From JAWCQZ01 sp038869515 [NCBI: Halobacteria archaeon] (GTDB lineage: Archaea; Halobacteriota; Syntropharchaeia; JACQPP01), in assembly GCA_038869515.1 (NCBI GenBank), contig JAWCQZ010000011.1, positions 1 through 30,924 of the forward strand: a stretch of DNA of 30,924 bases, written 5' to 3'. Positions within the stretch are counted from its first letter, which is position 1; every line of letters begins with the position of its first letter. Under the pieces are notes generated by a model, which saw only the letters and a list, made by a program, of their open reading frames with translations, had not been told where the DNA came from and made no database searches. Positions 3,104 to 30,924 of this stretch are shown here, one piece after another. The translations under genes and the position numbers were made by a program.

Positions 3104-3664
3104 ATGGGCAAAGTTTGGGCCTTGAAGGAGTGGGCCGCCGTGTGCGAGGCGCTCGACCGCGGGATGCAAATCGTGCTGCTGCGCAAGGGGGGCATCGACG
3201 AGGTGCGGGGCGACTTCGCCGTGGAGCACCCTGAATTCTTCCTCTACCCGACCTGGGAGCACCAGCGGGCCGAGCACCTGCAGCCCCGTTTTCGGGAGGT
3301 CCTCGAGGAGTCGTTCCGGGAGCCTCCGGGCCACCGCGTCCCCATCCTCGACTTCGCCCGCGTCGAGAAGGTCCTGCGGGTGGGAGAGGCCTCAAAACTC
3401 CAGGCCCTGACGGACCACTGCGTCTGGACCTCCGAGCACGTGGCCCGGCGCCACGCCTACAAGCCGTCGAAGCCGATGTTCGTCATGCTTCTGCGGGTCT
3501 TCCGGCTGCCCGAGGCCCGGGCAGTCGCAGAGACCCCTCGGTACGCCGGCTGCAAGTCGTGGGTGGACCTCGATGAGCCGCTGGGGAGGGAGGGCGCCCG
3601 GCCGGTCCTCGACGACGCGCGGTTCGCGGAGGAGGTCGCCGCCCTCTCCCGGGCCCTGGCATGA
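3104..3664 (+). CDS. DUF1802-like protein
   Basis: A 186-residue protein that I recognise as DUF1802-like from its opening (WALKEWAAVCEALDRG), the following ILLRKGG-type segment, and the HPEFFLYPTWEHQ segment near residue 45. The family is conserved in archaea and bacteria and has no assigned biochemical role that I know of. There is no signal peptide or membrane segment. The start at 3104 has a T-rich TATA-like element (GGCTTTTTCCC, 3072-3082) 27-28 nt upstream, consistent with leaderless transcription. The stop overlaps the next start by 4 bp (ATGA at 3661-3664), so the HEAT-repeat protein downstream is very likely translated from the same message and may act with it. Confidence 0.8.
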   Translation: MGKVWALKEWAAVCEALDRGMQIVLLRKGGIDEVRGDFAVEHPEFFLYPTWEHQRAEHLQPRFREVLEESFREPPGHRVPILDFARVEKVLRVGEASKLQALTDHCVWTSEHVARRHAYKPSKPMFVMLLRVFRLPEARAVAETPRYAGCKSWVDLDEPLGREGARPVLDDARFAEEVAALSRALA

Positions 3665-5980: not shown

Positions 5981-7149
5981 CGTCTCACGCCCGCAGCAGG
6001 CACGAGCCGGATTGCGGCCCGGGCCCTCCGGGCCCTCGCCACGGCCTCCCGGACAGTCCTGCCCGTGGCGGTGATGTGGCCCATCTTCCTCATGGGTGCC
6101 GATGTTTTCTTGCCGTAGATATAGAGCACGGCCCCGGGGACCCGGGCCATCTTCTCCAGCCCCCGGACGGCGTAGGGACCGCTCAGGCCCCCGGGGCCCA
6201 GGAGGTTCGCCATGGCCGCAGGGGAGAGCAACTCCGGCTTCGCGAGGGGCAGGCCGAGGACCGCCCGCAGGTGCTGCTCGAACTGCGACACCGAGCAAGC
6301 CTCATTGGCATAGTGCCCGGAATTGTGGACCCGGGGCGCGATTTCGTTGACGAGAATGCCGCCCGACCGGGTCACGAACATCTCGACCCCGAAGATGCCC
6401 GCCCCGCGCAGGGCTTTCACCGCGCTCTCGGCGGTGCGTCTCGCGCGGGCTTCCGTCCGGCGGCTGACCCGCGCGGGCGCGATGGTCGTGTCCAGGATGC
6501 CATCGCGGTGGATGTTCTCGACCACGGGAAACGACTCGACCTGCCCCGACGGGTTGCGGGCCACCATGACCGAGACCTCCCTGGCGAAGGGGACAAACCT
6601 CTCCAGCATCGTCTCCCGGCCCGGGAAGCGGCCGAGGGCCCCGCGGATACCCGACTCCTTGGAAATGACGAAGTTGCCCCGCCCGTCGTAGGCGTCCTCG
6701 GTCGCCTTGAGGACCGCCGGGAGGCCGAACCTCCTGCAGAGCCGGCGCAACGCCTCCTCCGATTCGACGCGCTGGAAGTCCGGGACGGGGATGTTGCGCC
6801 TCCGGAGGAACGTTTTCTGGCGGTGCTTGTTCTGGAGAATCCGGAGGATCCGGGGGGCGGGACGGACCGGGTATCCGCGCCTCTCCAGCCGCCGGAGCGC
6901 GGTCGAGCCCGCGAGTTCGATTTCGTAGGTCAGGACGTCGCATTTCGCGGCCAGCCGCTCGATGGCCTCCTCGCTTTTGAAGCTGGCGACGACCTGCTCG
7001 TCCGCCACCTGCGCGGCGGGGCAGCCCTCGGTCGGATCGAGGACGACGACCCGGAGCGAGAGCCGCTTCGCCTCGGCGGCCATCATCTTGCCCAACTGCC
7101 CCCCGCCCAGGATTCCCACGCAGGTCGGGCGGTCCATGGAGATGGCCAT
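5977..7149 (-). CDS. purK: N5-CAIR synthetase PurK (ATP-grasp)
   Basis: PurK carboxylates aminoimidazole ribonucleotide with ATP and bicarbonate, giving N5-CAIR for PurE. The 390-residue protein starts with the PurK nucleotide-fold sequence [13 protein letters not shown]. It has the ATP-grasp features YDGRGNF (near 168), the [12 protein letters not shown] strand and the metal-binding [13 protein letters not shown] loop (near 285). Length is normal. ATG 7149 lies about 25 nt from a CTATTAAGC box (7170-7178), consistent with a leaderless transcript; a second in-frame ATG at 7137 would give MDRPTC. It heads the operon purK-purE-trm5-like and is divergent from the HTH-ThiN gene. Confidence 0.95.
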
Positions 7150-12837: not shown

Positions 12838-12996
12838 ATGGCGTGCGAGATGTGCGGCGCCCCCGGGCCCCTTCAGGACGCGGTCTTCTTCGACCACGAC
12901 CCGGTCCTGAAGGCGCAGCAGAGGCGGCCGGTGAAACTCTGCGCGGAGTGCGCCTCCTCCATGGAGATCGAGCCCACCGGGGGGGCCTCGGAATGA
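12838..12996 (+). CDS. Small zinc-finger protein
   Basis: 52 residues. Two Cys pairs (CEMC at residues 3-6 and CAEC at about 36-39) would bind one zinc ion in a ribbon-like fold; the sequence between them is charged (VFFDHDPVLKAQQRRPVKL). There is no membrane segment. The ATG at 12838 has a TATA-like T-run 26-27 nt upstream. The stop overlaps the GH38 mannosidase start (ATGA at 12993-12996), so the two are translationally coupled. The role is unknown; such small zinc ribbons often bind nucleic acid or act as protein adaptors. The upstream reading frame is open, which is why a longer fusion is possible, but the promoter and methionine favour this short form. Confidence 0.7.
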   Translation: MACEMCGAPGPLQDAVFFDHDPVLKAQQRRPVKLCAECASSMEIEPTGGASE

Positions 12997-15512
12997 AGGA
13001 GTTGGCCGGTCGCGAAATCTTCGCCGTCCCCCACTTTCACTTCGACTTCGAGTGGTGGAAGTCCCTCGAGGGCTACGCCGAGGACGTGAAGGAGGTCCTC
13101 CGGGGCGCCCTCGACCTCCTCGACCGGAGGCCCGACTTCCGGTTCACCGTGGACGGCCTCTACGCGGCCCGACTGGTCCTCGGGACCCCCGAGGAGGCGC
13201 GCTTCCGCCGCCACCTCAAGGAGGGGCGCATCGAAATCGTCGGCAACACGATTTGCGGCCCCGACGAGAACCTCCCCACCGGGGAGGGGCTCATCCGGCA
13301 GCTGCTGCTGGTCCGGCGGAAGTTCCGGGAGACCTTCGGGACGTGGGGCCGGGTGGCGTGGATGATCGACGAGTTTGGCCACTCCGCCCAGATGCCCCAG
13401 ATTTTCCTCAAGGCGGGGATGGAGGCTTTCTCCTTCGCCCGGGGCATCCCCCACGGTTCGGACCACCCGGCCGACTTCTGGTGGGAGGCCCCCGACGGCT
13501 CCCGCGTCCTCACCCACCACATGGCGACCCACTACGCGGGGTTCGCCCCCTTCCTGCCGCCGCCGCTGGGTGCGACCCACGACGAGGAGGCGGAGTTCAC
13601 CGCCCGCTTCCTCGCGCCCCGCAGTCCCGGGCCCCTCTTCATGCCGATGGGGACCGACTTCACCGTCCCCTCGATGAAGTGGGCCGAGTTCTGGGACCGC
13701 TGGAACCGCGACCCGGACGGGCGTCCCAGGGCCCGCTTCGCGCTCCCCTCCGACTACTTCCGCGCCCTGGAGCCGCACCGGGAGGGGCTGCCGGTGGTCC
13801 GGGGCGAATTCAACCCGCTGTTCGAGGGGTGCTACGAGTCGCGGGAGGGGCTGAAGAAGCGGATGAGGTCCACCGCCCATCTCCTCCTGGAAGCGGAGCG
13901 GTGGAACGCGGTCGCGCAATCCCTGGGGGTCCCGCCCCGCGACCTCGACGGGGCGTGGGAGGAGGCGGTGGCCAACGACGCCCACGACGTCGGGTGCGGA
14001 ACCATCACCGACCCCCTCGCCGAAAAGGCGGAGGCGCGCTACCGCAGGGCCGGGGAGCGGGGTCGGGGGGTCCTGGAGGAGGCGCTCGAAGCGGTCGCGT
14101 CGCAGGCGGATACGAACGGCCCCGGGAGGGCCCACGTCGTCTTCAACAGCCTCCCCTGGAAGCGGACCCTCTGCGTCGAACTCCCGGGCGCGGGTCTGGC
14201 GGAGGTCGAACTCCCGCCCCTCGGGTTCCGGGTTGTCCGCGGAGCCGGGCACACTCCCCCCGGGGGGGCCGGGGCGCGGGCCGCCCTCGAAGGCCGGGGC
14301 GCGCTCCTGGAGAACGACCGCCTCCGGGTCGAGGTGGACCCCCTCGGGAATGTGGTGGCGGCCGACAAGGCGGGAGGCGCGGCCGTCCGGGGCAACCGGC
14401 TCCGGTGCGAGGAGGACCTCGGGAACCTCTGGGTCGTCCGTACCACCGGAATCCGCCTCGGTCCCGCAACACCCGCGAACCTCCGGGTGGTCGAGCGGGG
14501 GCCCCTGAGAGCGGTCGTCGAGGCGACCGGGAGCCACCCCCACTTCGAGTGGGCCAAGCGCGTCATCCTCCACCGCACCTCGCGGGTCGTGGAGTTCGAG
14601 ACCGACATCCGCTACACCGGCCGCTCCTCCCGCGTCACCGCCGAGTTCGACGGGCCGACCGGCGACCGGACCCTCCACGAAATCCCCTACGGCGCCGTAG
14701 AGCGCGGCCCCGGAATCTGGCCGGTCCAGAACTGGGCCGCCGCCGACGGGTGGGCCCTCCTCAACCGGGGCATCCCCTCGCTCCAGACGAAACCGGGCCG
14801 CATGGCCCTTGGCCTGATGCGCTCGGTCGAGGTGCTGCCCCTCCGGCTCATCCCCCACCTCCTCCGCCGCCTCCCGGCGCTGGTGAAGGCTCTTGGCGGG
14901 GCTCTGGCCGCAATCTCGAAGGGCTACAACCGGTTCGAGGACATCATGATGCCGTTCCACCACCTGGTCCTGCGGGAGTTCGCGTCGAAGGGCCCCGGGT
15001 TCGAGGCGAGGGGAGGCATCACGATTCCCGACCATCTCATCCCCGCCATCCTGCGGTGGAAGGTCTCGACGGCGTGGGAGCGCGGCCTCCACAGGTTCCA
15101 CTACGCGCTCGCGCTGGGCGTGGAGCGCGACGCCCTCCCGCGCCTCGGGATGGAGTTCCAGCACCCGGCGCGGGTGGTGGCTGCGGAGCCCCACCCCGGG
15201 GAGTTGGGGGCGGAGCACTCGTTCGCGGCGGTCGCGTCGCGGAGCGAGGCGACCGGAGGCGACGGAGTCGGCTCGGCCGACCAGACTCCGGTCTTGTGGA
15301 CCGCCCTGCGGCGCGATGCCGAAGGGCGGTGGGTCGCAAGGCTCGTCAACATGTCCGGCGGGCCGGTGACCGCGCGGCCGCGCTTCTTCCGGCGCATCGT
15401 CCGGGCCGAGAAGGTCGCGCTCACCGAGGAGGAGGTCTACGGGCCGGTCCCGTGGCCCGAGGTCCCATTGGGGCCGTGGGAGATTGCGACGGTGAGGATG
15501 GTGGAAGGGTAG
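12993..15512 (+). CDS. GH38 alpha-mannosidase
   Basis: 839 residues, a full-length family GH38 retaining alpha-mannosidase that uses zinc to cleave alpha-mannosides. The N-terminal HFHFDFEWW holds the metal-binding His/Asp. WMIDEFGHSAQMPQIF (near 125) contains the catalytic nucleophile Asp, and NDAHDVGCGTITD (near 330) supplies another metal ligand. C-terminal beta domains follow. There is no signal peptide, so it probably acts in the cytosol on glycans taken up or trimmed from N-glycans, which is inference. The start overlaps the small zinc-finger stop (ATGA) and is preferred over longer upstream frames, which have no coding character. It is the last gene before a 416-bp non-coding stretch. 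Confidence 0.9.
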   Translation: MKELAGREIFAVPHFHFDFEWWKSLEGYAEDVKEVLRGALDLLDRRPDFRFTVDGLYAARLVLGTPEEARFRRHLKEGRIEIVGNTICGPDENLPTGEGLIRQLLLVRRKFRETFGTWGRVAWMIDEFGHSAQMPQIFLKAGMEAFSFARGIPHGSDHPADFWWEAPDGSRVLTHHMATHYAGFAPFLPPPLGATHDEEAEFTARFLAPRSPGPLFMPMGTDFTVPSMKWAEFWDRWNRDPDGRPRARFALPSDYFRALEPHREGLPVVRGEFNPLFEGCYESREGLKKRMRSTAHLLLEAERWNAVAQSLGVPPRDLDGAWEEAVANDAHDVGCGTITDPLAEKAEARYRRAGERGRGVLEEALEAVASQADTNGPGRAHVVFNSLPWKRTLCVELPGAGLAEVELPPLGFRVVRGAGHTPPGGAGARAALEGRGALLENDRLRVEVDPLGNVVAADKAGGAAVRGNRLRCEEDLGNLWVVRTTGIRLGPATPANLRVVERGPLRAVVEATGSHPHFEWAKRVILHRTSRVVEFETDIRYTGRSSRVTAEFDGPTGDRTLHEIPYGAVERGPGIWPVQNWAAADGWALLNRGIPSLQTKPGRMALGLMRSVEVLPLRLIPHLLRRLPALVKALGGALAAISKGYNRFEDIMMPFHHLVLREFASKGPGFEARGGITIPDHLIPAILRWKVSTAWERGLHRFHYALALGVERDALPRLGMEFQHPARVVAAEPHPGELGAEHSFAAVASRSEATGGDGVGSADQTPVLWTALRRDAEGRWVARLVNMSGGPVTARPRFFRRIVRAEKVALTEEEVYGPVPWPEVPLGPWEIATVRMVEG

Positions 15513-21548: not shown

Positions 21549-21947
21549 TCACCTGAAGCCCGCTCTCTCGGCCTCTTCCTTCACAAAAGCCAGCACCTTG
21601 CGGGCATTTCGAATCGCTTGTTCGGCCTGGCTCTCCGAAGGGGGCGCCCCTCCTCCATAGGATATGGGGGCATGAAGCTCTTCGATGAAATCGATTGCTT
21701 GCGCCAGCTCCTCCGGCATTCCCGCTTCGGCAGCCCGCTTCCCCACCTCTCCATGCCTCAGCCGGCCTCTCCTTCCGTGTTTCAGGCTTCGATAGGCGAC
21801 GGCCGCGTTGTGGACGGCCAAGTGGGAGGCCTCGATTGCCAGGGAGGGATCTCCGGCCCTGGTCCCCACTTCGGCGGACTCCATCCACCGCTTGGCTGCG
21901 CCGAACGACTCGGCGAACCTCTTGCGGGCTCTGGCGTCCGCAGCCAT
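21549..21947 (-). CDS. HEPN-domain protein, copy 1 (putative toxin)
   Basis: 132 residues, all-helical. IEASHLAVHNAAVAYRSLKHG and the C-terminal ISYGG...ARKVLAFVKE match the HEPN fold as found next to minimal nucleotidyltransferases. In characterised systems HEPN proteins are RNases neutralised by AMPylation of a Tyr by the partner MNT. The canonical R-x4-6-H motif is not evident here, so nuclease activity is unproven. It starts 3 nt after the AbrB-MNT stop (21951) on the same strand and is certainly cotranscribed. The sequence is not close to the copy 2 HEPN. It lies in an accessory island with lower GC in its spacers. Confidence 0.75.
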   Translation of the reverse strand: MAADARARKRFAESFGAAKRWMESAEVGTRAGDPSLAIEASHLAVHNAAVAYRSLKHGRRGRLRHGEVGKRAAEAGMPEELAQAIDFIEELHAPISYGGGAPPSESQAEQAIRNARKVLAFVKEEAERAGFR

Positions 21948-21950
21948 GCG

Positions 21951-22481
21951 TCAAGCGGGATTTGCCTCGGCCTTGGTCTCCACTCCCTCCACCTCGTACA
22001 GATACTCAAGAGGGGGGACGCCGTGGGGAAACTCGACCGGGTCCACGTAGAGCGGGAATCCAGACGCGACCTCGTCCTCAAACCACACCCAACTCACGTC
22101 GGAAAGTGCAATCGCGACGGTGCTCAGGGGAGTCCCCCTCATGCGGATATTCAGTTCGGCGGATATCTCGATGACCTTCGTCTGTGCCCTCTCGTCCCGG
22201 ACGACGACGAAGAGGTCGATGTCGCTCCGGTCGGCCTTGAACTTCGGCGTCACGAAGGAACCGAACAGGTAGACCAGGAGGACCTCCTTCCCGAGCAGGG
22301 GCCGGATGGCCTCCATGAACGCGGCTATCTTGGGATGCTTCGGGGTTTTGGACAGAACCATGTCGTTCCCCTCGGTGGACAGGAAGAGGCCGCCCCCCTC
22401 TCTGAGCCCCAGCGACGCCAGGACGCGCCGGGGGATGCGGAGGGAGAGCGAGTTGCCGACCTTCACGAGGGGGAGGCGCAT
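21951..22481 (-). CDS. AbrB-MNT fusion, copy 1 (putative antitoxin)
   Basis: 176 residues. Residues 1-45 form a SpoVT/AbrB swapped-hairpin DNA-binding domain (KVGNSLSLRIPRRVLASLGL). After a linker, residues about 65-176 are a minimal nucleotidyltransferase with Gly74-Ser75 and Asp87-x-Asp89 (SDIDLFVV). The third carboxylate, Asp125 in copy 2, is Ser120 here. MNT proteins paired with HEPN are antitoxins that AMPylate the toxin; the AbrB part would add promoter autoregulation, as in other antitoxins. ATG 22481 was chosen because the TTTAA box at 22506-22510 is 27 nt upstream, and GTATATAC palindromes lie between. The alternative GTG at 22505 is inside that operator. Confidence 0.8.
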   Translation of the reverse strand: MRLPLVKVGNSLSLRIPRRVLASLGLREGGGLFLSTEGNDMVLSKTPKHPKIAAFMEAIRPLLGKEVLLVYLFGSFVTPKFKADRSDIDLFVVVRDERAQTKVIEISAELNIRMRGTPLSTVAIALSDVSWVWFEDEVASGFPLYVDPVEFPHGVPPLEYLYEVEGVETKAEANPA

Positions 22482-22482
22482 A

Positions 22483-22511
22483 GTATATACTATTTGTATA
22501 TACACTTAAAC
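22483..22511 (-). promoter_or_regulatory. TATA box and twin GTATATAC palindromes before AbrB-MNT copy 1
   Basis: GTTTAAGTG (22505-22511 region) is centred 27 nt from ATG 22481. Between them lie two self-complementary GTATATAC sites (22483-22490 and 22496-22503) whose starts are 13 bp apart. They are ideally placed for autorepression by the AbrB domain. Confidence 0.6.
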
Positions 22512-23525: not shown

Positions 23526-23999
23526 ATGACCGTTACCCTCCAGGCCTCCCGCGTCCAGCGGGTCGGAAACAGCCGCGGAATCATCCTGCCCCGCAAAGTG
23601 CTTTCGCATCTCGGCTGGAGAGAGGGGGACCCTGTGTTCCTCTCCACCGACGGCCGCCGCCTTGCCGTCTCCCGCGACCCCGGGGGCCCCATCGGCGACT
23701 TCCTGGACGCCATTCGCGACATCCTCGGAACCGAGGTCCGGCAGGTGCGCCTCCTGGGCTCTTATGGCACCCCCCGCTACCGCCCCGGGGAGAGCGACAT
23801 CGACCTCTACATCGAGACGCGCAGCGACACCCCGGGCATCCGCAATCGCTTGCACCGGGCCGCCGTGGACGCAGGTCTCAAGCACGGGGTCTCCTTCGAC
23901 CTCACTCTCCTCACCGCACCTCAGGCCCGGCGCTCCGAGAGGCTCGGGGTCCCCTACCTCCGCGAGGTCCGCCGTGGCACACTCCTCTATGGCGCGTGA
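23526..23999 (+). CDS. AbrB-MNT fusion, copy 2 (putative antitoxin)
   Basis: 157 residues and collinear with copy 1. AbrB domain at 8-50 (RVQRVGNSRGIILPRKVLSH), MNT domain from about 70 with Gly78-Ser79, Asp91-x-Asp93 and Asp125 (VSFDLTLL). All three carboxylates are present, so this copy looks catalytically complete. As in copy 1, the loop between the Gly-Ser and the Asp pair has 11 residues with a TP(K/R)(F/Y) core. The stop overlaps the HEPN start by 11 bp, giving coupled translation. The start is supported by TTTAAG 28-29 nt upstream. Role inferred from MNT/HEPN systems. Confidence 0.83.
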   Translation: MTVTLQASRVQRVGNSRGIILPRKVLSHLGWREGDPVFLSTDGRRLAVSRDPGGPIGDFLDAIRDILGTEVRQVRLLGSYGTPRYRPGESDIDLYIETRSDTPGIRNRLHRAAVDAGLKHGVSFDLTLLTAPQARRSERLGVPYLREVRRGTLLYGA

Positions 24000-24381
24000 A
24001 AGCCTCCCGGACATCCTCCTGGACCGGGCCCGGGAGTTCCTCGAGTCCGCCGAGACCGACCTGGGGGAGGAGCGGTTCCACTCGGCGGCGAGCCGCGCCT
24101 ACTACGCGGTTTTCACCGCCGCCCGCGCCCTCCTTCACCGGCGGGGCAGGGCCGCCAAGACCCACGGAGGTCTCTGGTCGCTGTTCGGAAGAGAACTGGT
24201 CGTCCCCGGCCACATGGAACGCGAGATGGCGAGAATCGCATCTGAGTTGCGGAGCCTGCGAAACATCTCCGACTACGGGCAGGAGGCCCCGGTGACCCGC
24301 GAGAGGGCCCGGGAGGCGGTGGAGGGGGCAAGGAGGTTCGTGGAGAGGGCGGAGCAGGTGAGCCGGAGGCTGCAGGAATGA
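23989..24381 (+). CDS. HEPN-domain protein, copy 2 (putative toxin)
   Basis: 130 residues. SAASRAYYAVFTAARALLHR, a THGGLWSLFG turn and LRSLRNISDYG near residue 95 are hallmarks of the HEPN family paired with MNT. The ATG at 23989 overlaps the last codons of AbrB-MNT copy 2 (11 bp). In known systems the Tyr following the R-x4-6-H motif is AMPylated by the MNT. A clear R-x4-6-H is not visible, though Tyr residues lie in the corresponding helix. The gene is convergent with a winged-helix regulator 17 nt away. Toxicity is not shown by the sequence. Confidence 0.8.
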   Translation: MARESLPDILLDRAREFLESAETDLGEERFHSAASRAYYAVFTAARALLHRRGRAAKTHGGLWSLFGRELVVPGHMEREMARIASELRSLRNISDYGQEAPVTRERAREAVEGARRFVERAEQVSRRLQE

Positions 24382-24398
24382 AATGGGGTGGAGTCTTC

Positions 24399-24977
24399 TC
24401 AAGAAACCTCTTCCGGAAACTTCTCCAGATACTCCCTCGCCCGCTCCATCTCCCTCTTCGAAGCGCCCTTCAGGGCCTCCTCGGAGACCCTCCCCTTCTT
24501 GAGCCAGCCGGCCACGCGCAGGAGATGCGCCCGCTCCCGGTCGGCGGCGGCCCTCTCCGCAGGCGTGGGAGGGCGCCACTTCAGGGTCGGGCCGATGCGG
24601 TAGACGAGGTCGCGGGTGACCTTGTCCTCGGGGCTCTCCCCCAGTTCCAGGATGATTTCGTCCACATCGGGGTTCCGCAGCAACTTCTCCCGCAGGAGCT
24701 CCATGGTCCGCTGGATGCGGGGGTGGATGTCGGGCATCTTGGTCACCGGCAGGTAGCCGCTCAGGCTGACGGCCGCGTCGATGTGCTCGGGGAGGCTGTA
24801 GAGGGCCACGAAGCGGTTGCCCCGGCGCATGGGGTAGATGAGGACCTTCCGCTCCTCCAGGAGCCGGGTCATGTGCTTGTAGAGGGTCTTCTCCGAGACC
24901 CGCATGAGCGTCGAGAGCTCCTTGGCGGTTTTGGGGCCGTTCCCCAGCAGGGCGAGGGGCTCCCGGGGCTCGGCCAT
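24399..24977 (-). CDS. Winged-helix (ArsR/MarR-like) transcriptional regulator
   Basis: 192 residues. Residues about 15-75 form a winged HTH: KTAKELSTLMRVSEKTLYKH, then the wing RLLEERKVLIYPMRRGNRFV. The rest is helical with acidic stretches (PDVDEIILELGESPEDK) and may sense a ligand or dimerise. The ATG at 24977 was chosen because it precedes the HTH directly; the frame runs further upstream into the shared promoter region. A 17-bp palindrome at 24984-25000 begins 6 nt before the start and has a close match upstream of the large secreted protein, so this protein is the likely regulator of both secreted genes and of itself. Inferred, not shown. Confidence 0.75.
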   Translation of the reverse strand: MAEPREPLALLGNGPKTAKELSTLMRVSEKTLYKHMTRLLEERKVLIYPMRRGNRFVALYSLPEHIDAAVSLSGYLPVTKMPDIHPRIQRTMELLREKLLRNPDVDEIILELGESPEDKVTRDLVYRIGPTLKWRPPTPAERAAADRERAHLLRVAGWLKKGRVSEEALKGASKREMERAREYLEKFPEEVS

Positions 24978-24983
24978 CCAGAA

Positions 24984-25000
24984 AGGAAAGTCTCTTACCC
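24984..25000. promoter_or_regulatory. 17-bp palindrome A, candidate operator
   Basis: AGGAAAG-TCT-CTTACCC, 14 of 17 identical to the palindrome at 26849. It lies at the start of the winged-helix gene and about 128 nt before the glycoside hydrolase ATG. Confidence 0.5.
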
Positions 25001-25023
25001 GCAAGAATCTTTCGTAAAGAGTT

Positions 25024-25055
25024 CCATTTTGGTGAAAAACGGCAGGAAAACTGGA
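25024..25055 (+). promoter_or_regulatory. Conserved promoter block of the glycoside hydrolase gene
   Basis: 32 nt, 25 identical with one gap to 26887-26919. It ends in AAAACTGGA, which starts exactly 81 nt before ATG 25128, the same distance as in the large secreted protein gene. The GGTGAAAAAC part lies where the other copy has a good TATA box. Confidence 0.5.
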
Positions 25056-25127
25056 GTTCCAGATTCCTTGGGAAAGTGGTTTCCGGCGCATCTACGAAGA
25101 TGATGGGGAGCGGCCCCTGGGGGGGCC

Positions 25128-26828
25128 ATGGTCCGCCTCGGCGCCCTGCCGGTCCTCTCCGGCCATCGAAACCTCAAATCCTGGAGAACTTTCGCCCTGT
25201 CGGTTTCGATGGCCGGCCTCCTTCTCTCAGTTCCGGCTCTCGCCTCCGACTCCCAGCCCATCGGGGTCAACATCGACGACCCGAGCCCGGCCCTGAACAT
25301 CTTCCCCAAAGCGGGCCAGGCGGGCATGGACTGGGTCCGCATCTGGCTCTGGTGGCGCTGGCTGGAGCCGGTCCAGGGGCAGATTGACTGGACCCCCATT
25401 GACCAGCAGGTGGCCGCCGCCGAGGCTGCCGGCCTGAACATCATGGCCACGGTCGTTTCCGTCCCCTCCTGGGCCAACGGGGTCCCGGCGAACTGCGACT
25501 TCTTCCGGGACCAGACGTGCAGCAAGTTCCCGGCGTCGGCCTCGGCCTCCTACGAGAGCTTCCTCCGGCGGGCCGTGGCTCGCTACCCGGGGCGGGTGAA
25601 GGCGTGGGGCCTCTGGAACGAGCCCAACCTCAAACTGTTCTTCGACGACACGACCTCGTCGGGCAAGGACGACATCAACAACTACATCGGCCGCATCCTG
25701 GTCCCCGGCCACCGGGCCGTGAAGGAGACCGACGCCGCAGCCCTCGTGGTGGCCCCCGACCTGGCCCACGTCGGGTCGTGCCTCATCACCTGCCCCCGCG
25801 AATACTGGAAAACGTGGCTGCGGGACATCCTGCGCTACAACCAGGCGGGCATGATGGACGTGGTTTCCCACCACATCTACAAGAACGACGACGCCGACGC
25901 CATGGTCGACGCCATCGTGAACGACGTCCGGCCGGTCCTGGTGAGCAACTACGCCGCCAACAAGCCCTTCTGGGTCACCGAGTTGGGGGTGGACGGCTCC
26001 AAGACCGGCCTCCACAACCAGGCCATGGAGTTCCGGGACGTCTATCTCAAGATGGCGGCCTATCCCTGGTGGCACAAGACCTTCATCTACCGCATGTGGG
26101 ACCAGTTCTGGTTCGACGGAAGGTTCTCCGTGGGCCTCGTCGCCGAGATGGGGAGCCGCGGGGAGGCCCCCCACCACAAGCCCTCCTTCTACTCGGTGCG
26201 GAACTTCGCCGACCCCGCCCTCCTGATGCTCCCCCTGGACGACTCCACCTCCAGCGTCACCGCGGGCGAGGCTCCCTCCGAAAACACCGGCGTTACCCTG
26301 GAAGGCGGATACCACCTCAACGGGGCCCGGGTGGGAGGCCGCCTCTCCTTCGCCTCCTCCGGCAACTTCGCTCCCAACCAGGGAACCGCTGAGATGTGGG
26401 TCCGCCCCGACTGGTCCTACAGCCCCGGCTGCACCGGCCGCCCCCACATGCTCTTCTACTGGGGCTCCCAGGCTTGGCAGAACGAACTGCGGCTCTTCAC
26501 CTGGAACGAGTGCGTCTTGGCGGCTCGGTGGGTGGTGAATGGGGAGGTCAAGAGCGTGGAGGTCCCCGCCGACATGATGGCCGCCGGGAACTGGTACCAC
26601 CTCGTGACCACGTGGGACGCGGCGTCGGGCCAGGCGGCCCTTTACGTGAACGGCCAGCCCGTCGGTCAGCGCATGGATTGGAGCGCCCCCTCCGGAACGG
26701 CCGCCAACATCAACATCGGCCACGCCTACGGGACCGACAACTTCGGCGGCGTCCTCGATTTGGTCACCATCTACGGAAGCGCACGGAGCGCGGCCCAGGT
26801 GGCGGCGGACTACCAGATGGAGGCGTAG
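25128..26828 (+). CDS. Secreted glycoside hydrolase (TIM-barrel clan A) with LamG-like domain
   Basis: 566 residues. An N-terminal signal peptide (about 20-40, LSVSMAGLLLSVPALAS) points to secretion. Residues about 44-360 form a clan-A TIM barrel like GH39/GH5: acid/base Glu165 in WGLWNEPN and nucleophile Glu285 in FWVTELG. Residues about 375-566 are a LamG/concanavalin-like jelly roll (GTAEMWVRPDWSY, WYHLVTTWDAASGQAALYVN). The exact glycan is unknown. The start at 25128 gives a normal signal peptide and puts the conserved AAAACTGGA at -81, as in the next secreted gene. It is divergent from the winged-helix regulator. Confidence 0.85.
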   Translation: MVRLGALPVLSGHRNLKSWRTFALSVSMAGLLLSVPALASDSQPIGVNIDDPSPALNIFPKAGQAGMDWVRIWLWWRWLEPVQGQIDWTPIDQQVAAAEAAGLNIMATVVSVPSWANGVPANCDFFRDQTCSKFPASASASYESFLRRAVARYPGRVKAWGLWNEPNLKLFFDDTTSSGKDDINNYIGRILVPGHRAVKETDAAALVVAPDLAHVGSCLITCPREYWKTWLRDILRYNQAGMMDVVSHHIYKNDDADAMVDAIVNDVRPVLVSNYAANKPFWVTELGVDGSKTGLHNQAMEFRDVYLKMAAYPWWHKTFIYRMWDQFWFDGRFSVGLVAEMGSRGEAPHHKPSFYSVRNFADPALLMLPLDDSTSSVTAGEAPSENTGVTLEGGYHLNGARVGGRLSFASSGNFAPNQGTAEMWVRPDWSYSPGCTGRPHMLFYWGSQAWQNELRLFTWNECVLAARWVVNGEVKSVEVPADMMAAGNWYHLVTTWDAASGQAALYVNGQPVGQRMDWSAPSGTAANINIGHAYGTDNFGGVLDLVTIYGSARSAAQVAADYQMEA

Positions 26829-26848
26829 TCGCCCGCCGAGGTCTGCGC

Positions 26849-26865
26849 AGGTAAGTGTCTTACCT
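26849..26865. promoter_or_regulatory. 17-bp palindrome B, candidate operator
   Basis: AGGTAAG-TGT-CTTACCT is a perfect 7-bp inverted repeat. It matches the one at 24984-25000 (14 of 17). It could also form a hairpin after the hydrolase stop, but its recurrence favours a protein-binding site. Confidence 0.55.
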
Positions 26866-26886
26866 TTCTAAATAGCTTGATAAGGC

Positions 26887-26919
26887 CGATTTTAGGCTAA
26901 ATACGCCATAAAAACTGGA
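26887..26919 (+). promoter_or_regulatory. Conserved promoter block of the large secreted gene
   Basis: It contains GGCTAAATACG, a good TATA box with a start expected near 26925, and AAAACTGGA beginning 81 nt before ATG 26992. The leader would be about 66 nt, unusual in this largely leaderless window. Confidence 0.6.
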
Positions 26920-26991
26920 TTTCTTACAAGCACTGAAACCCATCTCCCGAGAATTTGCGAATATGTCGCTGGGGAGCGCCCAGACTCGTAG

Positions 26992-29900
26992 ATGTCGTGG
27001 AGGGTATACGGGGGCATCGCGCTCGTTCTCGCTCTGACCCTCGCCGCCCCCGCCTCCGCCACCCACGACACGACCCGCTACACCGACGCCCCCTACTTCG
27101 ACCTCGCGGCCCGCTGGGCCCCCGTGTTCGGCCAGGACACCGCCTCGAAATACACCGAGGACTACATCACCCGGTTCGACTTCGACCACGACTGGGTCGG
27201 AAACAACAACTGGGACAACACCTATCTCTACGAGCAGAACGCGGCGCTCTACGCCCTGAAGGCGTGGATCTACTACTCTGTGGTCGAGACCGACTCCCAC
27301 TGGTATATCCACTACTACGCCTTCCACCCCCGGGACTGGAACAACGTCTGGTTCGGCGGCTGCGGCCCCGACCCCGACTGCCACGAGAACGACGGCGAAG
27401 GGGTCCTCCTGGTGGTCCAGAAGGACGGGACTCCCTACGGCCGGGTCCAGGTCGTGGAGACCCTGGCCCACGACGAATTCTACCAGTACACCGATGACGC
27501 GAGCATCAAGAGCGGAACGGACAACGTGGATGGGGGAATCGTATATGACTCAACCACCGGGACGCCGGTGGTCTACGTCGAGTCCAAGGGCCACGGCATC
27601 TGCGGCTGGGACAGCCCCTCCACGGTGAAGTGCAGCCACAGCAAGAACGACGACTTCCCCGGCGGCGACGGCCTCTTCTACCGCTACAAAGGCGTCGCCG
27701 AGCTGCCGGAGCACAAGAACGACCGGGACGTGGGCTACGACCTGCTGCCGATGAGCCTCCTCTGGGACCGCAGGGCGGACATCGGCAACGGCCGCACCTT
27801 CGACTGCCCATTCTCCTACGCGGGAGCCCGCCACTCCATCCCGGGGACCATCGGCGGCTGCCTCGACGGCGACACGAAGGGCGACGACCAGGCCAAGCCC
27901 CCCTGGGGCTGGGACGACTCCAACGACGGGCCGGTTTACAAGGGGGACTGGTTCTTCGACCCCGCCCACGCGGTCTCGACCCACCTCGACATCCCGGTCA
28001 CCTCCCCGCTGGTGACCCCGACCGCCGCCGACCAGGACGGCGACACCCTCGACGACGCGAAGGAGCAGGCGCTCCTGGAGCAGTTCAAGCCCACGTGGCA
28101 CTTCCACCGCAAGGACAAGGCGAAGGGACCCGTCCAACTCCAGAAGGGGACGACCGACCCCGTCGTGGTCGATGGCTCCGAAGGCTACATCTACGCCTGG
28201 GCCCGCCCCAGCCCCGGGGGGTGCCCGCCAGCGGCTGCGGACGCCGGCATGTGCAGTCAGGCCGCCGTCAGCGTCGAGCTCAAGTTCATCCCCATCTGGG
28301 AGTGGGACTACGGCCTCCCTCCGACCTTCAACTGGCCCTGGTGCATCCCGGGCATCACATTCCACAAGTGGGACCGGGAGGGCGGGGTCCGGCTCCTGGT
28401 CAGCGGCCCCTCCTGGGACGCGGCGCCCGACCAGTGGCGCATCTGGCGCATCGCCTACCACCACCACGGCGACCTCGACGAATACCCGGGTCTCCCGGGC
28501 ATCGGCTCCAACACCGGGGAGTCGGTGAGCGCCTACACCTCGTGGAACAAGCACGGGACCTACCCGAGCGTCGAGACGGCCCGGAACGAGGACAGCGCCG
28601 CCTTCTGCGACATCGCCGACGAGGGGGCGCCGGCCCACCGGGACTACACCCCGGACAACCTCGGCGAGTTCGGCCGGCCGATGAACAACAACCTCTTCGG
28701 TGGCTTCTACAACAACGGGAAGAACCGCCTCGAGCCCGCCATGGGCGTCTTCTCCACCACCTACGTGGACAACCCCTACCTCTCCATCACCCCCGACCCG
28801 CCGGTGGTGGACCCCGAGGCTCCGCCCGCCCCCACCCTCGGCTCCCCCGAATTCCTCGACCCCGCCCTCCAGATTTCCGCCGACATCCGGGCGCGCCACA
28901 TGCCCTTCGGGACCATCCACGACCCCGTCTACGACTCGCCGACCGGGAACACCATTGTCGGCTACGCCCGCTGCGGCGACTCGGCCATCTGGACTGGCCA
29001 CTACCTCGCGGCCGAGTCCTACCGCTACTCTGTGACCCGGGACGCCGAAGCCCTCGCCAACGTCCGCTCTGCCCTCTCCGGCCTCCACAACCTCCTCGAA
29101 ATCACCGGAGGCGAAGGGCTCCTGGCCCGCTGCATGATTCGCGCCGACTCCCCCTACCTGGCCGGGGAACTCGCCGCAGAGGCCCACAACAGGCCCACCC
29201 TCGCCAGCCTCAACGGCGTGGACTACTACTGGTTCGACCATGTGAGCCGCGACCAGTACACCGGTGCTATGTTCGGCTTCATGACCGCCTGGCGCCTCGT
29301 GGACGCCCCGGACGTCCGGGACACCGCGGCCGCGGACATCACCCGCATGGTGGATTTCCTCGTCCGCAACAACTGGGTGGTCCCCTACCCCGACGGCCGC
29401 CCGAGCCTCGTCCTCTTCTGGGGCAGGTTCGACCAGCAACTCGCATTCCTCCAGATGGCGCGGACCGTGAACCCGGCCAAGTTCCAGTCCAAATACGACA
29501 GCATGGCCGCCCTCTCATCGAAACTGGTCTCGGCTCCCATCTGGTTCGAGACGCTGGACACCCACAACTCCTACTACAAGTTCAACCTCGACTACGACAA
29601 CCTGTTCCACCTTGTCCTCCTGGAGGATGACGCGGCCCGGAAGGCCGACTACATGAAGGCTTACACCACCCTCCGGAAAGCCACAGAGAGCCACGGCAAC
29701 GCCCACTTCAACATGATTGACCGGGCCCTCCGCGGCCCCGAGGCGGGCCGGGACGCCGAGACCCAGCAACTCCTCGCCGACTGGCTCACCCGGCCCCGCC
29801 GGGACGTCTGGGTGGACCTCTCGGGAAGCGTCCCCGTCTGCGGGGGGAAGGCGTGCAGCCCCGTCCCCGTCGCCCAGCGGGTCAACACCGACTTCCTCTG

Positions 29901-30924
29901 GCAGCGCTCGCCCTTCCAACTCGCGGGCGGCGGCGCCGGGACCATCGAGAGCCCGGGCATTGACTACATCCTCCCCTACTGGATGGCGCGCCACTACCTG
30001 GAGCCCTGGGAGAGCGAGACCACGGCAAGCCCCGCCGGGCCCGAGGCCGACGTGACGACGCTCTTCGCGGAGGCGGAGCCCGCCGCCACCCTGGACGGAA
30101 TCCTGACCGGCAACTTCCACGAGGACTCGGTCTCGGCCGACCAGTTGTGGGACATCCCGCTGGCCGGCGTCCCGTTCCTCAACGTGGGCGCGGGAGTGAA
30201 GGTCACCGCCAAGAACGTGGAGGGCGAGTGGGGCCAGTGGTTCGTCCGCATCGCCGCCGACAGAGTCGAGGTCACGCCGGTGGCGGGCGCGGGCGTCCCC
30301 GGCTTCCGCATCGTCGAAATCAACGGCGGCGTGGCTCTCGTGGTGACCGACCCCTCGGCGGAAATCGCCATCGAGTCGGGCAACCTCGTTTACCAGGCCT
30401 CGTTCTCCTCCCTCGACGCGGGCACGCGCGACGTCGTGATCCAACTCTTCGGGAAGGAGGTCTACCGGATCGACATCCCTGACTGGTCCTACCACCTTCT
30501 CGACGGCCGGCAGGTCCGGGGGGTCCTGGGCCTCTCCACCTCCATCCGGCCCACGAGCCTGAACCTTGACGCGAGCGGGCTCAACCTCTCCTGGCCCGCC
30601 GTCCCCGGCGCCGCCCAGTACTCCATCGTCGAGGCGACGAACAAGTTCAACACCGCCGTGGCGAAAGTCGTGAACACGACCCGGACTTTCTTCCAGGACC
30701 TCGCCGACGACGCCGGGCAGGTCTTCTACTGGATCCGGCCGGTGGACGCGGACGGCACCGTGGCCCCGACCACGTCGGTCGTCTCCAAGGTGAAGAAGAC
30801 CTTCACCTACCAGCCCGGCAAGACCAACCTCTTCTGGGTCTCCATCCCCCACGGCTCGAAGTTCGCCAGGGCCTCCGACATCGTCGCCGCCCTCGAGCCG
30901 GAGGGCGGAAACTCGAAGGTCAGC
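26992..30924 (+). CDS. Giant secreted multidomain protein, 3' end beyond window
   Basis: At least 1311 residues with no stop before the window ends. A signal peptide is at about 4-22 (LVLALTLAAPASA). Residues about 35-340 are a beta-rich domain with aromatic/His clusters (WYIHYYAFHPRDW, then HENDGEGV near 131-138) recalling Vps62-like folds. A calcium-loop-like DQDGDTLDD (347-355) precedes a second such domain (to about 500, AYHHHGDLDEYPG). From about 645 there is a helical, possibly (alpha/alpha)-toroid region (GDSAIWTGHYLAAESYRYS), then a beta region. A fibronectin III-like domain (about 1186-1268) and the start of another domain follow. It is likely a surface or secreted glycan-binding or degrading protein. 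The ATG at 26992 is 81 nt from the same promoter element as the hydrolase. Confidence 0.8.
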   Translation, partial: MSWRVYGGIALVLALTLAAPASATHDTTRYTDAPYFDLAARWAPVFGQDTASKYTEDYITRFDFDHDWVGNNNWDNTYLYEQNAALYALKAWIYYSVVETDSHWYIHYYAFHPRDWNNVWFGGCGPDPDCHENDGEGVLLVVQKDGTPYGRVQVVETLAHDEFYQYTDDASIKSGTDNVDGGIVYDSTTGTPVVYVESKGHGICGWDSPSTVKCSHSKNDDFPGGDGLFYRYKGVAELPEHKNDRDVGYDLLPMSLLWDRRADIGNGRTFDCPFSYAGARHSIPGTIGGCLDGDTKGDDQAKPPWGWDDSNDGPVYKGDWFFDPAHAVSTHLDIPVTSPLVTPTAADQDGDTLDDAKEQALLEQFKPTWHFHRKDKAKGPVQLQKGTTDPVVVDGSEGYIYAWARPSPGGCPPAAADAGMCSQAAVSVELKFIPIWEWDYGLPPTFNWPWCIPGITFHKWDREGGVRLLVSGPSWDAAPDQWRIWRIAYHHHGDLDEYPGLPGIGSNTGESVSAYTSWNKHGTYPSVETARNEDSAAFCDIADEGAPAHRDYTPDNLGEFGRPMNNNLFGGFYNNGKNRLEPAMGVFSTTYVDNPYLSITPDPPVVDPEAPPAPTLGSPEFLDPALQISADIRARHMPFGTIHDPVYDSPTGNTIVGYARCGDSAIWTGHYLAAESYRYSVTRDAEALANVRSALSGLHNLLEITGGEGLLARCMIRADSPYLAGELAAEAHNRPTLASLNGVDYYWFDHVSRDQYTGAMFGFMTAWRLVDAPDVRDTAAADITRMVDFLVRNNWVVPYPDGRPSLVLFWGRFDQQLAFLQMARTVNPAKFQSKYDSMAALSSKLVSAPIWFETLDTHNSYYKFNLDYDNLFHLVLLEDDAARKADYMKAYTTLRKATESHGNAHFNMIDRALRGPEAGRDAETQQLLADWLTRPRRDVWVDLSGSVPVCGGKACSPVPVAQRVNTDFLWQRSPFQLAGGGAGTIESPGIDYILPYWMARHYLEPWESETTASPAGPEADVTTLFAEAEPAATLDGILTGNFHEDSVSADQLWDIPLAGVPFLNVGAGVKVTAKNVEGEWGQWFVRIAADRVEVTPVAGAGVPGFRIVEINGGVALVVTDPSAEIAIESGNLVYQASFSSLDAGTRDVVIQLFGKEVYRIDIPDWSYHLLDGRQVRGVLGLSTSIRPTSLNLDASGLNLSWPAVPGAAQYSIVEATNKFNTAVAKVVNTTRTFFQDLADDAGQVFYWIRPVDADGTVAPTTSVVSKVKKTFTYQPGKTNLFWVSIPHGSKFARASDIVAALEPEGGNSKVS

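What the first reader, a model, noticed from the sequence alone, without database searches (positions are those of the whole stretch)
24984..26992. Putative winged-helix regulon of two secreted proteins with duplicated promoters
Palindromes AGGAAAG-TCT-CTTACCC (24984) and AGGTAAG-TGT-CTTACCT (26849) match at 14 of 17 positions. Each is followed by a conserved block (25 of 32 identical) ending in AAAACTGGA exactly 81 nt before ATG 25128 and ATG 26992. The whole promoters, about 140 nt, keep the same spacing within 2 nt. The first palindrome also abuts the winged-helix regulator start. This is a strong sign of coordinated control of glycan-active secreted proteins.
Basis: partly seen in the sequence, partly recalled or inferred. 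Interest (0 to 1): 0.62.

Follow-up and report, generated by a model that had tools for sequence, protein, structure and literature searches.

The report
Shared promoter of archaeal secreted proteins
Two neighbouring genes for secreted proteins in an uncultured archaeon carry near-matching switch regions of about 145 bases, and the same switch recurs before secreted-protein genes in a related archaeon, so it is probably a real shared control element, although the protein that reads it is not yet identified.

Summary
Palindromes at 24984 and 26849 match at 14 of 17 positions and start 144 and 143 nt before ATG 25128 and 26992; AAAACTGGA starts 81 nt before each. Similarity runs through the whole region (88 of 149 columns; 0 of 1000 shuffles as good, with or without the palindrome).

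The window looks archaeal. In the nearest held genome (G001, a groundwater 'Euryarchaeota' MAG) a relaxed pattern hits 7 places. The 4 hit on both strands lie 79-145 nt before genes of proteins with signal-like N termini; background 12 of 155 genes. Two carry the full module at 145 nt. A model of the two window promoters alone finds just those two in 705 kb (E 5e-7, 0.014).

A small conserved regulon of secreted, partly glycosidase-like proteins is thus well supported. That the adjacent winged-helix protein reads the palindrome is not: its four full-length G001 paralogs are not beside the sites (nearest, same contig, 23 kb off) and lack the palindrome nearby. 'Glycan-active' fits 25128, is untested for 26992. 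RNA folding is at chance. A new lineage-restricted operator of a known kind.

The parts
24984..25000 (.). Palindrome 1 (imperfect dyad AGGAAAG-TCT-CTTACCC), putative operator
   Evidence: 11 of 12 half-site positions
25027..25059 (+). Conserved block in promoter 1, includes AAAACTGGA at 25047 (starts 81 nt before ATG)
24984..25127 (+). Promoter module 1 (palindrome to ATG, 144 nt)
25088..25102 (+). Conserved columns before the ATG (GCATCTACGAAGATG), aligned with GGATTTTAGAATATG of G001; possible weak TATA
   Evidence: alignment; core-promoter role inferred, crude scoring inconclusive
24399..24977 (-). Winged-helix-like protein, 192 aa, start revised from 25091 to 24977; candidate regulator
25128..26828 (+). 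Secreted-type PslG-like barrel with C-terminal LamG domain, 566 aa
26849..26865 (.). Palindrome 2 (perfect dyad AGGTAAG-TGT-CTTACCT), putative operator
   Evidence: 12 of 12 half-site positions
26891..26923 (+). Conserved block in promoter 2, AAAACTGGA at 26911 (starts 81 nt before ATG)
26849..26991 (+). Promoter module 2 (palindrome to ATG, 143 nt)
26992..30924 (+). Large protein with an N-terminal signal-like stretch (by eye), at least 1310 aa, runs off the window; no family assigned

Best explanation
The two regions are copies of one DNA promoter module of an archaeal regulon for secreted proteins. A dimeric regulator binds the dyad GGTAAG-N3-CTTACC upstream of the core promoter of each gene and, with further conserved sequence between it and the start codon, sets transcription; the upstream place suggests activation. 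In promoter 1 the same site lies just before the divergent winged-helix gene's start, where binding would repress that gene. SHOWN: module, spacing, recurrence in a second genome before proteins with signal-like N termini. INFERRED: binding by a dimeric protein, activation, core-promoter place. GUESSED: that the adjacent winged-helix protein is the binder (about 0.4).
For: Same length and full-length similarity in four promoters of two genomes: 144, 143, 145, 145 nt; six pairwise z values without the palindrome from 3.3 to 13.3, with 0 to 2 of 1000 shuffles as good. Model R2, trained only on the window pair, finds L105 (5.3e-7) and L104 (0.014) and nothing else at E up to 10 in 50 loci, 705,063 bases; it must be said that L104/L105 had been fetched because of the palindrome. 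In G001, GGTAANTNNNTTACC at up to 1 mismatch: 11 rows, 7 distinct places, against 3 rows for the reversed control; the 4 places matching on both strands (C99, C77, C55, C134) precede proteins with signal-like N termini, the other 3 match one strand only. My crude hydrophobicity rule flagged 3 of these 4 targets; the C99 target is cut by its contig end, was not scored by the rule, and is judged by eye. Half-site scores of 11 of 12 or better: 0 in a 178,927 bp sample of G001; secreted-like genes there 12 of 155, so 4 of 4 would have a chance of about 3.6e-5 and, counting the paralogous C99 and C77 targets once, 3 of 3 about 5e-4 (my arithmetic, sites taken as random before genes). RNA folding not above chance: z -0.69, -1.06, 0.39, 0.15. 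Rule that sites upstream of BRE/TATA activate and sites at the start of transcription repress: reported for TrmB-type regulators (PMC4158304, passages).
Against: The G001 count rests on few sites and one draft genome of untold completeness. At up to 3 mismatches the first relaxed pattern gave 12 rows against 14 for its control; only the low-mismatch and both-strand subset stands out, and that pattern was drawn partly from the C99 site already seen by eye. C55 and C134 lack the rest of the module (79 and 111 nt; no model match there at E up to 10). The full module occurs at only 2 places in G001, whose genes are paralogs (83% over 108 aa). The signal-peptide rule is mine, untested, and also flagged at least one likely false case (the V4R regulator frame in L104 with an over-long start). 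No TATA of normal strength lies at the same column in all four promoters (crude). Nothing tests binding, direction of control or the inducer.
Confidence: 0.7

Rival explanations
1. The module is a real operator-bearing promoter, but it is read by another regulator common to both genomes; the divergent winged-helix gene is a bystander with its own, different operator.
For: The dyad keeps its place relative to the secreted gene, not to the winged-helix gene. Four full-length G001 paralogs (48, 43, 39, 36% to the window protein) and one short weak hit are not beside the four sites; the nearest is on the same contig as the C55 site but 23 kb away. Their loci lack the dyad at up to 3 mismatches apart from one non-dyad hit in L082.
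Against: A divergent regulator next to its target is a common layout (general knowledge); a paralog in G001 (L082) is also divergent from a secreted lipase-like gene; the family appears as lineage-restricted as the module (1 of 392 genomes drawn from the phylum at E 1e-8, 1 of 58 of the class at E 1e-6, both G001). G001 may simply lack the orthologous contig.
Confidence: 0.45
2. The conserved ~145 nt is an RNA leader (riboswitch-like or translational control) rather than a DNA promoter.
For: Long, rigid, full-length conservation up to the ATG; the dyad can fold as a 6-pair hairpin and 2 of 8 consensus pairs, both outside the dyad, show a change on both sides.
Against: Folding energies at chance in all four; one dyad pair is broken in promoter 1 and one in C99; 3 Rfam matches at E 0.16 to 0.64, all far below their gathering scores; the dyad alone recurs at 79 and 111 nt.
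Confidence: 0.08
3. The second promoter is a copy left by an old duplication and the similarity is mere descent without function.
For: Full-length similarity, two adjacent genes, paralogous genes in G001.
Against: The 26992 protein matched none of the 5 other proteins validly compared at E up to 0.1, the 25128 protein included, so no gene was duplicated along; patchwise conservation kept across two genomes about 73% alike in a threonine-synthase-like protein argues for selection.
Confidence: 0.1

Closest known systems
TrmB family and its operators (TACT-N3-AGTA; TGM TATCAC-N5-GTGATA) in Thermococcales
   Same: Archaeal winged-helix regulators; dyad operators before sugar-related genes, alpha-amylases included; some self-regulated; place relative to BRE/TATA decides activation or repression (PMC4158304, passages).
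   Different: Operator sequence differs; the window protein scores below the Pfam TrmB cut-off (17.6 vs 25.6 bits), is 192 aa and matches no TrmB effector domain; dyad here starts 143-145 nt before the ATG at four genes.
TrmBL4 of Thermococcus barophilus
   Same: A regulator linked to which proteins an archaeon secretes on sugars (PMC10667668, outline and abstract).
   Different: TrmB-type protein with effects seen by proteomics; no shared promoter module is described in the abstract.
XylR / Ara-box of Sulfolobus acidocaldarius
   Same: Palindromic box in promoters of a sugar regulon, known for some time before its regulator was found (PMC7264815, passages).
   Different: Different box, lineage and target genes (transport and catabolism).
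sptA promoter of Natrinema sp. J7-2
   Same: Archaeal secreted enzyme whose expression involves semi-palindromes upstream of TATA plus a distant element (PMC6085418, outline and abstract).
   Different: Single gene, protease, haloarchaeon; no shared module on several genes described in the abstract.

Membership tests
TrmB family (regulator) | TrmB DNA-binding domain PF01978 above its cut-off | tested here: not met
   17.6 bits against 25.6; HTH_20 21.5 against 27, PF0610-like 22.1 against 33, HTH_5 16.5 against 22: a winged-helix-like N terminus, no curated cut-off reached
TrmB family (regulator) | Effector-binding domain PF11495 | tested here: not met
   No such match at E up to 1; some TrmB-like proteins lack it too (table in PMC4158304)
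TGM / TrmB operator | TATCAC-N5-GTGATA or TACT-N3-AGTA | tested here: not met
   Dyad is GGTAAG-N3-CTTACC by direct reading
Operator-defined regulon | Same dyad before several functionally related genes, above the background | tested here: met
   2 in the window, 4 both-strand places of 7 in G001, before proteins with signal-like N termini; background 12 of 155 genes
Operator-defined regulon | Regulator shown to bind | not testable with these tools
   needs a binding assay
Structured RNA leader | Folding better than shuffles, covariation | tested here: not met
   z between -1.06 and 0.39; no Rfam family at gathering score; 2 of 8 consensus pairs with a both-sides change, outside the dyad

The most novel reading that the evidence does not exclude
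A lineage-restricted archaeal 'promoter cassette' of fixed ~145 bp, carried by non-homologous secreted-protein genes in two genomes, with its dyad about 100 bp upstream of a weak TATA near the ATG: a long, rigid, enhancer-like promoter that was copied onto new secreted genes as a unit.
Probability: 0.2. Interest if true: 0.55.

Novelty: new member of a known kind. Interest (0 to 1): 0.42.

Why it matters
Regulons of archaea outside the model species are mostly unmapped (general knowledge). Here a dyad operator and a whole promoter module can be followed across two uncultured genomes and tie unrelated secreted proteins, some glycosidase-like, into one response. It gives a motif to search with in further genomes of the lineage and a short list of testable regulators.

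Tried and rejected
Own-genome search for the motif: no genome is held. Winged-helix protein in the GTDB contigs by peptide patterns: no relative found, though G001, reached through a locus of that same collection, does encode relatives, so that scan was simply too strict. Block pattern in G001 at up to 3 mismatches: none; strict palindrome at up to 1 mismatch: none. RNA leader: folding, Rfam and consensus structure give no support. Idea that each winged-helix paralog has an inverted repeat before its own start: dropped, best repeats not clearly better than shuffles (window 70, L081 23, L082 296, L083 239, L084 240 of 300 shuffles as good). TATA placement by a small matrix from 13 upstream regions: inconclusive; the matrix is noisy, e.g. 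it chose a poor site for one gene. Predicted structures of the winged-helix protein (pLDDT 54.9) and of residues 1-605 of the 26992 protein (pLDDT 30.4), both single sequence, too poor to use; no fold search was run. Profile search of the winged-helix family against solved structures: 8 hits at E 0.0085 to 0.59, the best two in sigma factors outside the winged-helix part; not used. Sigma-70 promoter and terminator scan of 24300-27100: nothing above shuffles, as expected of an archaeon. A near-dyad in promoter 1 (GGAAAGTGGTTTCC, about 50 nt before the ATG) has a different spacing and was not counted.

In one search the C55 protein was translated one base out of frame, so that row of the comparison is void; its naming as a metallophosphoesterase rests.
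Full report
What the window is. The window is 69.5% G+C and archaeal in character: several of the 35 gene starts I listed have a TATA-like element 25-35 nt before the ATG (by eye), the tRNA-Arg has no encoded CCA, and the closest relative found of its threonine-synthase-like protein is in a groundwater MAG labelled Euryarchaeota archaeon NC_groundwater_1310_Ag_S-0.2um_68_50 (73% identity). No genome of the window's own organism is held. The MAG's genome became handle G001; it is the only genome of its order that the search drew.

The observation. Both palindromes and the block are where stated. The ungapped match is 14 of 17 for the palindromes and 25 of 33 for the block by the repeat finder. 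AAAACTGGA starts 81 nt before both ATGs. Aligned over the whole palindrome-to-ATG stretch the two regions agree at 88 of 149 columns; none of 1000 dinucleotide shuffles did as well, and the same holds with the palindrome cut off. A perfect 7-3-7 dyad alone is not remarkable in this window, which has 8, and the bare count of pattern matches at up to 3 mismatches is not above chance (5 rows, mean 3.24 in shuffles).

Start of the regulator. The listed ORF begins at 25091. In the alignment with four G001 paralogs, three begin close to 24977 (MAEPREP...), the fourth as read has a longer N terminus. With 24977 the palindrome is 7-23 nt before the start, on the regulator's strand.

Recurrence in a related genome. 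A strict pattern missed. While reading the surroundings of a distant relative of the 25128 protein in G001 (L086, 29% identity) I saw AGGTAATTGACTTACCA before another secreted-type gene. A pattern relaxed to include it, at up to 3 mismatches, gave 12 rows (14 for the reversed control); a simpler pattern, GGTAANTNNNTTACC at up to 1 mismatch, gave 11 rows against 3 for the control. These 11 rows are 7 places. Four match on both strands, as a dyad should: C99:3329, C77:1491, C55:26368 and C134:444. All four lie before genes with a signal-like N terminus: two proteins 83% identical over 108 aa (C99 is cut by its contig end; the C77 protein is 26% similar to a neighbouring glycosidase-like protein of C99), a metallophosphoesterase, and a protein with weak glycosidase matches (GH130 below its Pfam cut-off, 21 against 26 bits; an anhydro-galactosidase in the PDB at 3.4e-6). 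The C77 protein itself matches no Pfam family. The distances to the ATG are 145, 145, 79 and 111 nt. The three other places (C4, C28, C102) match one strand only; within about 300 nt on either side I saw no signal-type start by eye. In a 178,927 bp sample of 20 other G001 stretches, no place reached 11 of 12 half-site positions and one reached 10 (apparently inside a reading frame, by eye); 12 of 155 called genes were secreted-like by a crude hydrophobicity rule. That rule is mine and untested. It flagged the C77, C55 and C134 targets and 3 of 23 called window genes (25128 and two others); it could not judge the C99 target or 26992, both cut by an end, and it also flagged the V4R regulator frame in L104, probably through an over-long start.

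The whole module. Four promoters (two in the window, C99 and C77) align over 150 columns with few gaps. Pairwise similarity without the palindrome has z of 3.3 to 13.3. A sequence-only model of all four finds just C77 and C99 in G001. At E up to 1, 42 of the 58 class genomes have some match, but the best outside G001 was E 0.0048 (17.7 bits, against 103 and 97 for the two), in line with chance over 57 genomes. In the window the model finds its two members and nothing else. A model of only the two window promoters finds C77 (5.3e-7) and C99 (0.014) and nothing else in 50 loci. C55 and C134 share the dyad alone.

What kind of element. Single-strand folding is at chance for all four, RNAalifold gives only the dyad and two further pairs, and Rfam has nothing near a gathering score. 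I therefore read it as DNA. Where the core promoter lies is open: a TATA-like stretch (GATTTTAGAATATG in G001) is conserved about 30-40 nt before the ATG, close to where many genes of the lineage seem to have theirs, and good TATA-like words also lie just after the palindrome in W2 and C99; a small scoring matrix did not decide. In both cases the dyad lies upstream of the core promoter of the secreted gene, which in TrmB-type systems is the place of an activator, and it lies close to the start of the divergent winged-helix gene, the place of a repressor (rule from PMC4158304, passages). This is inference.

Which regulator. The neighbour is a winged-helix-like protein below every Pfam cut-off. 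Its family was found only in G001 among 392 genomes drawn from the phylum (E 1e-8) and among 58 of the class (E 1e-6): 4 full-length paralogs and one weak short hit. One paralog (L082) is divergent from a secreted lipase-like gene, another (L081) from a prolyl-tRNA-synthetase-like gene (the latter named by eye). None is beside the four sites; one (C55:2820-3389) shares a contig with the C55 site, 23 kb away. None of the five loci shows the dyad at up to 3 mismatches, apart from one non-dyad hit in L082. In G001 the glycosidase-like gene before the C99 site is divergent from a different regulator, with a V4R domain. The link between winged-helix protein and palindrome is thus a candidate only; I give it about 0.4.

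Targets. 25128 has a barrel related to PslG (E 2.1e-6) and a LamG domain. 26992 begins like a secreted protein but matches no Pfam family over 1310 residues and one NCBIfam model at an insignificant E of 0.2; residues about 37-333 have relatives on 6 bacterial plasmids, mostly annotated as hypothetical, residues 342-580 a 49% relative in G001, and a short stretch is Fn3-like (E 0.0062). 'Glycan-active' is therefore fair for 25128 only.

Literature. Searches. The four written forms of the operator searched were not found in the held library (0 papers), which says little, as motifs are printed in many ways. Papers seen: PMC4158304 and PMC7264815 as passages, PMC10667668 and PMC6085418 as outline and abstract, the rest as listings.

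Verdict. The feature is real and conserved; the regulon reading is supported by a second genome; the named regulator is not established.

Noticed in passing
window 21549-22505 and 23526-24381: Two pairs that look like MNT nucleotidyltransferase (with an AbrB-like N terminus) and HEPN proteins, in opposite orientation; named from the sequence by eye, no family search gave these names.
   Followed up: no
L104 about 1860-1945 (G001:C99): A V4R-domain HTH regulator is divergent from a glycosidase-like secreted-type gene, with an inverted repeat GATTAAC-N6-GTTAATC between them; a second regulator-and-secreted-enzyme pair in the same lineage.
   Followed up: partly
L106 about 6394-6409 (G001:C55): A second perfect dyad, CCCTAACATGTTAGGG, follows the GGTAA-TTACC palindrome before the metallophosphoesterase gene.
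   Followed up: no
L104 about 3413-3447 and L105 about 1575-1609: The two full G001 promoters share GGTAACTYGTCKCTACGGGATTTTAGAATATGC about 30-60 nt before the ATG, holding an extra GGTAA half-site.
   Followed up: no
window 27100-27990 (residues 37-333 of the 26992 protein): A region with 30-39% identity to proteins on 6 plasmid records of Nostoc, Streptomyces, Eleftheria and Peribacillus; no Pfam family.
   Followed up: no
window 12843-15512: Reading frame that resembles an alpha-mannosidase-type glycoside hydrolase (by eye), a further carbohydrate enzyme; the only palindrome-pattern match there is a 3-mismatch one inside the frame at 13539.
   Followed up: no
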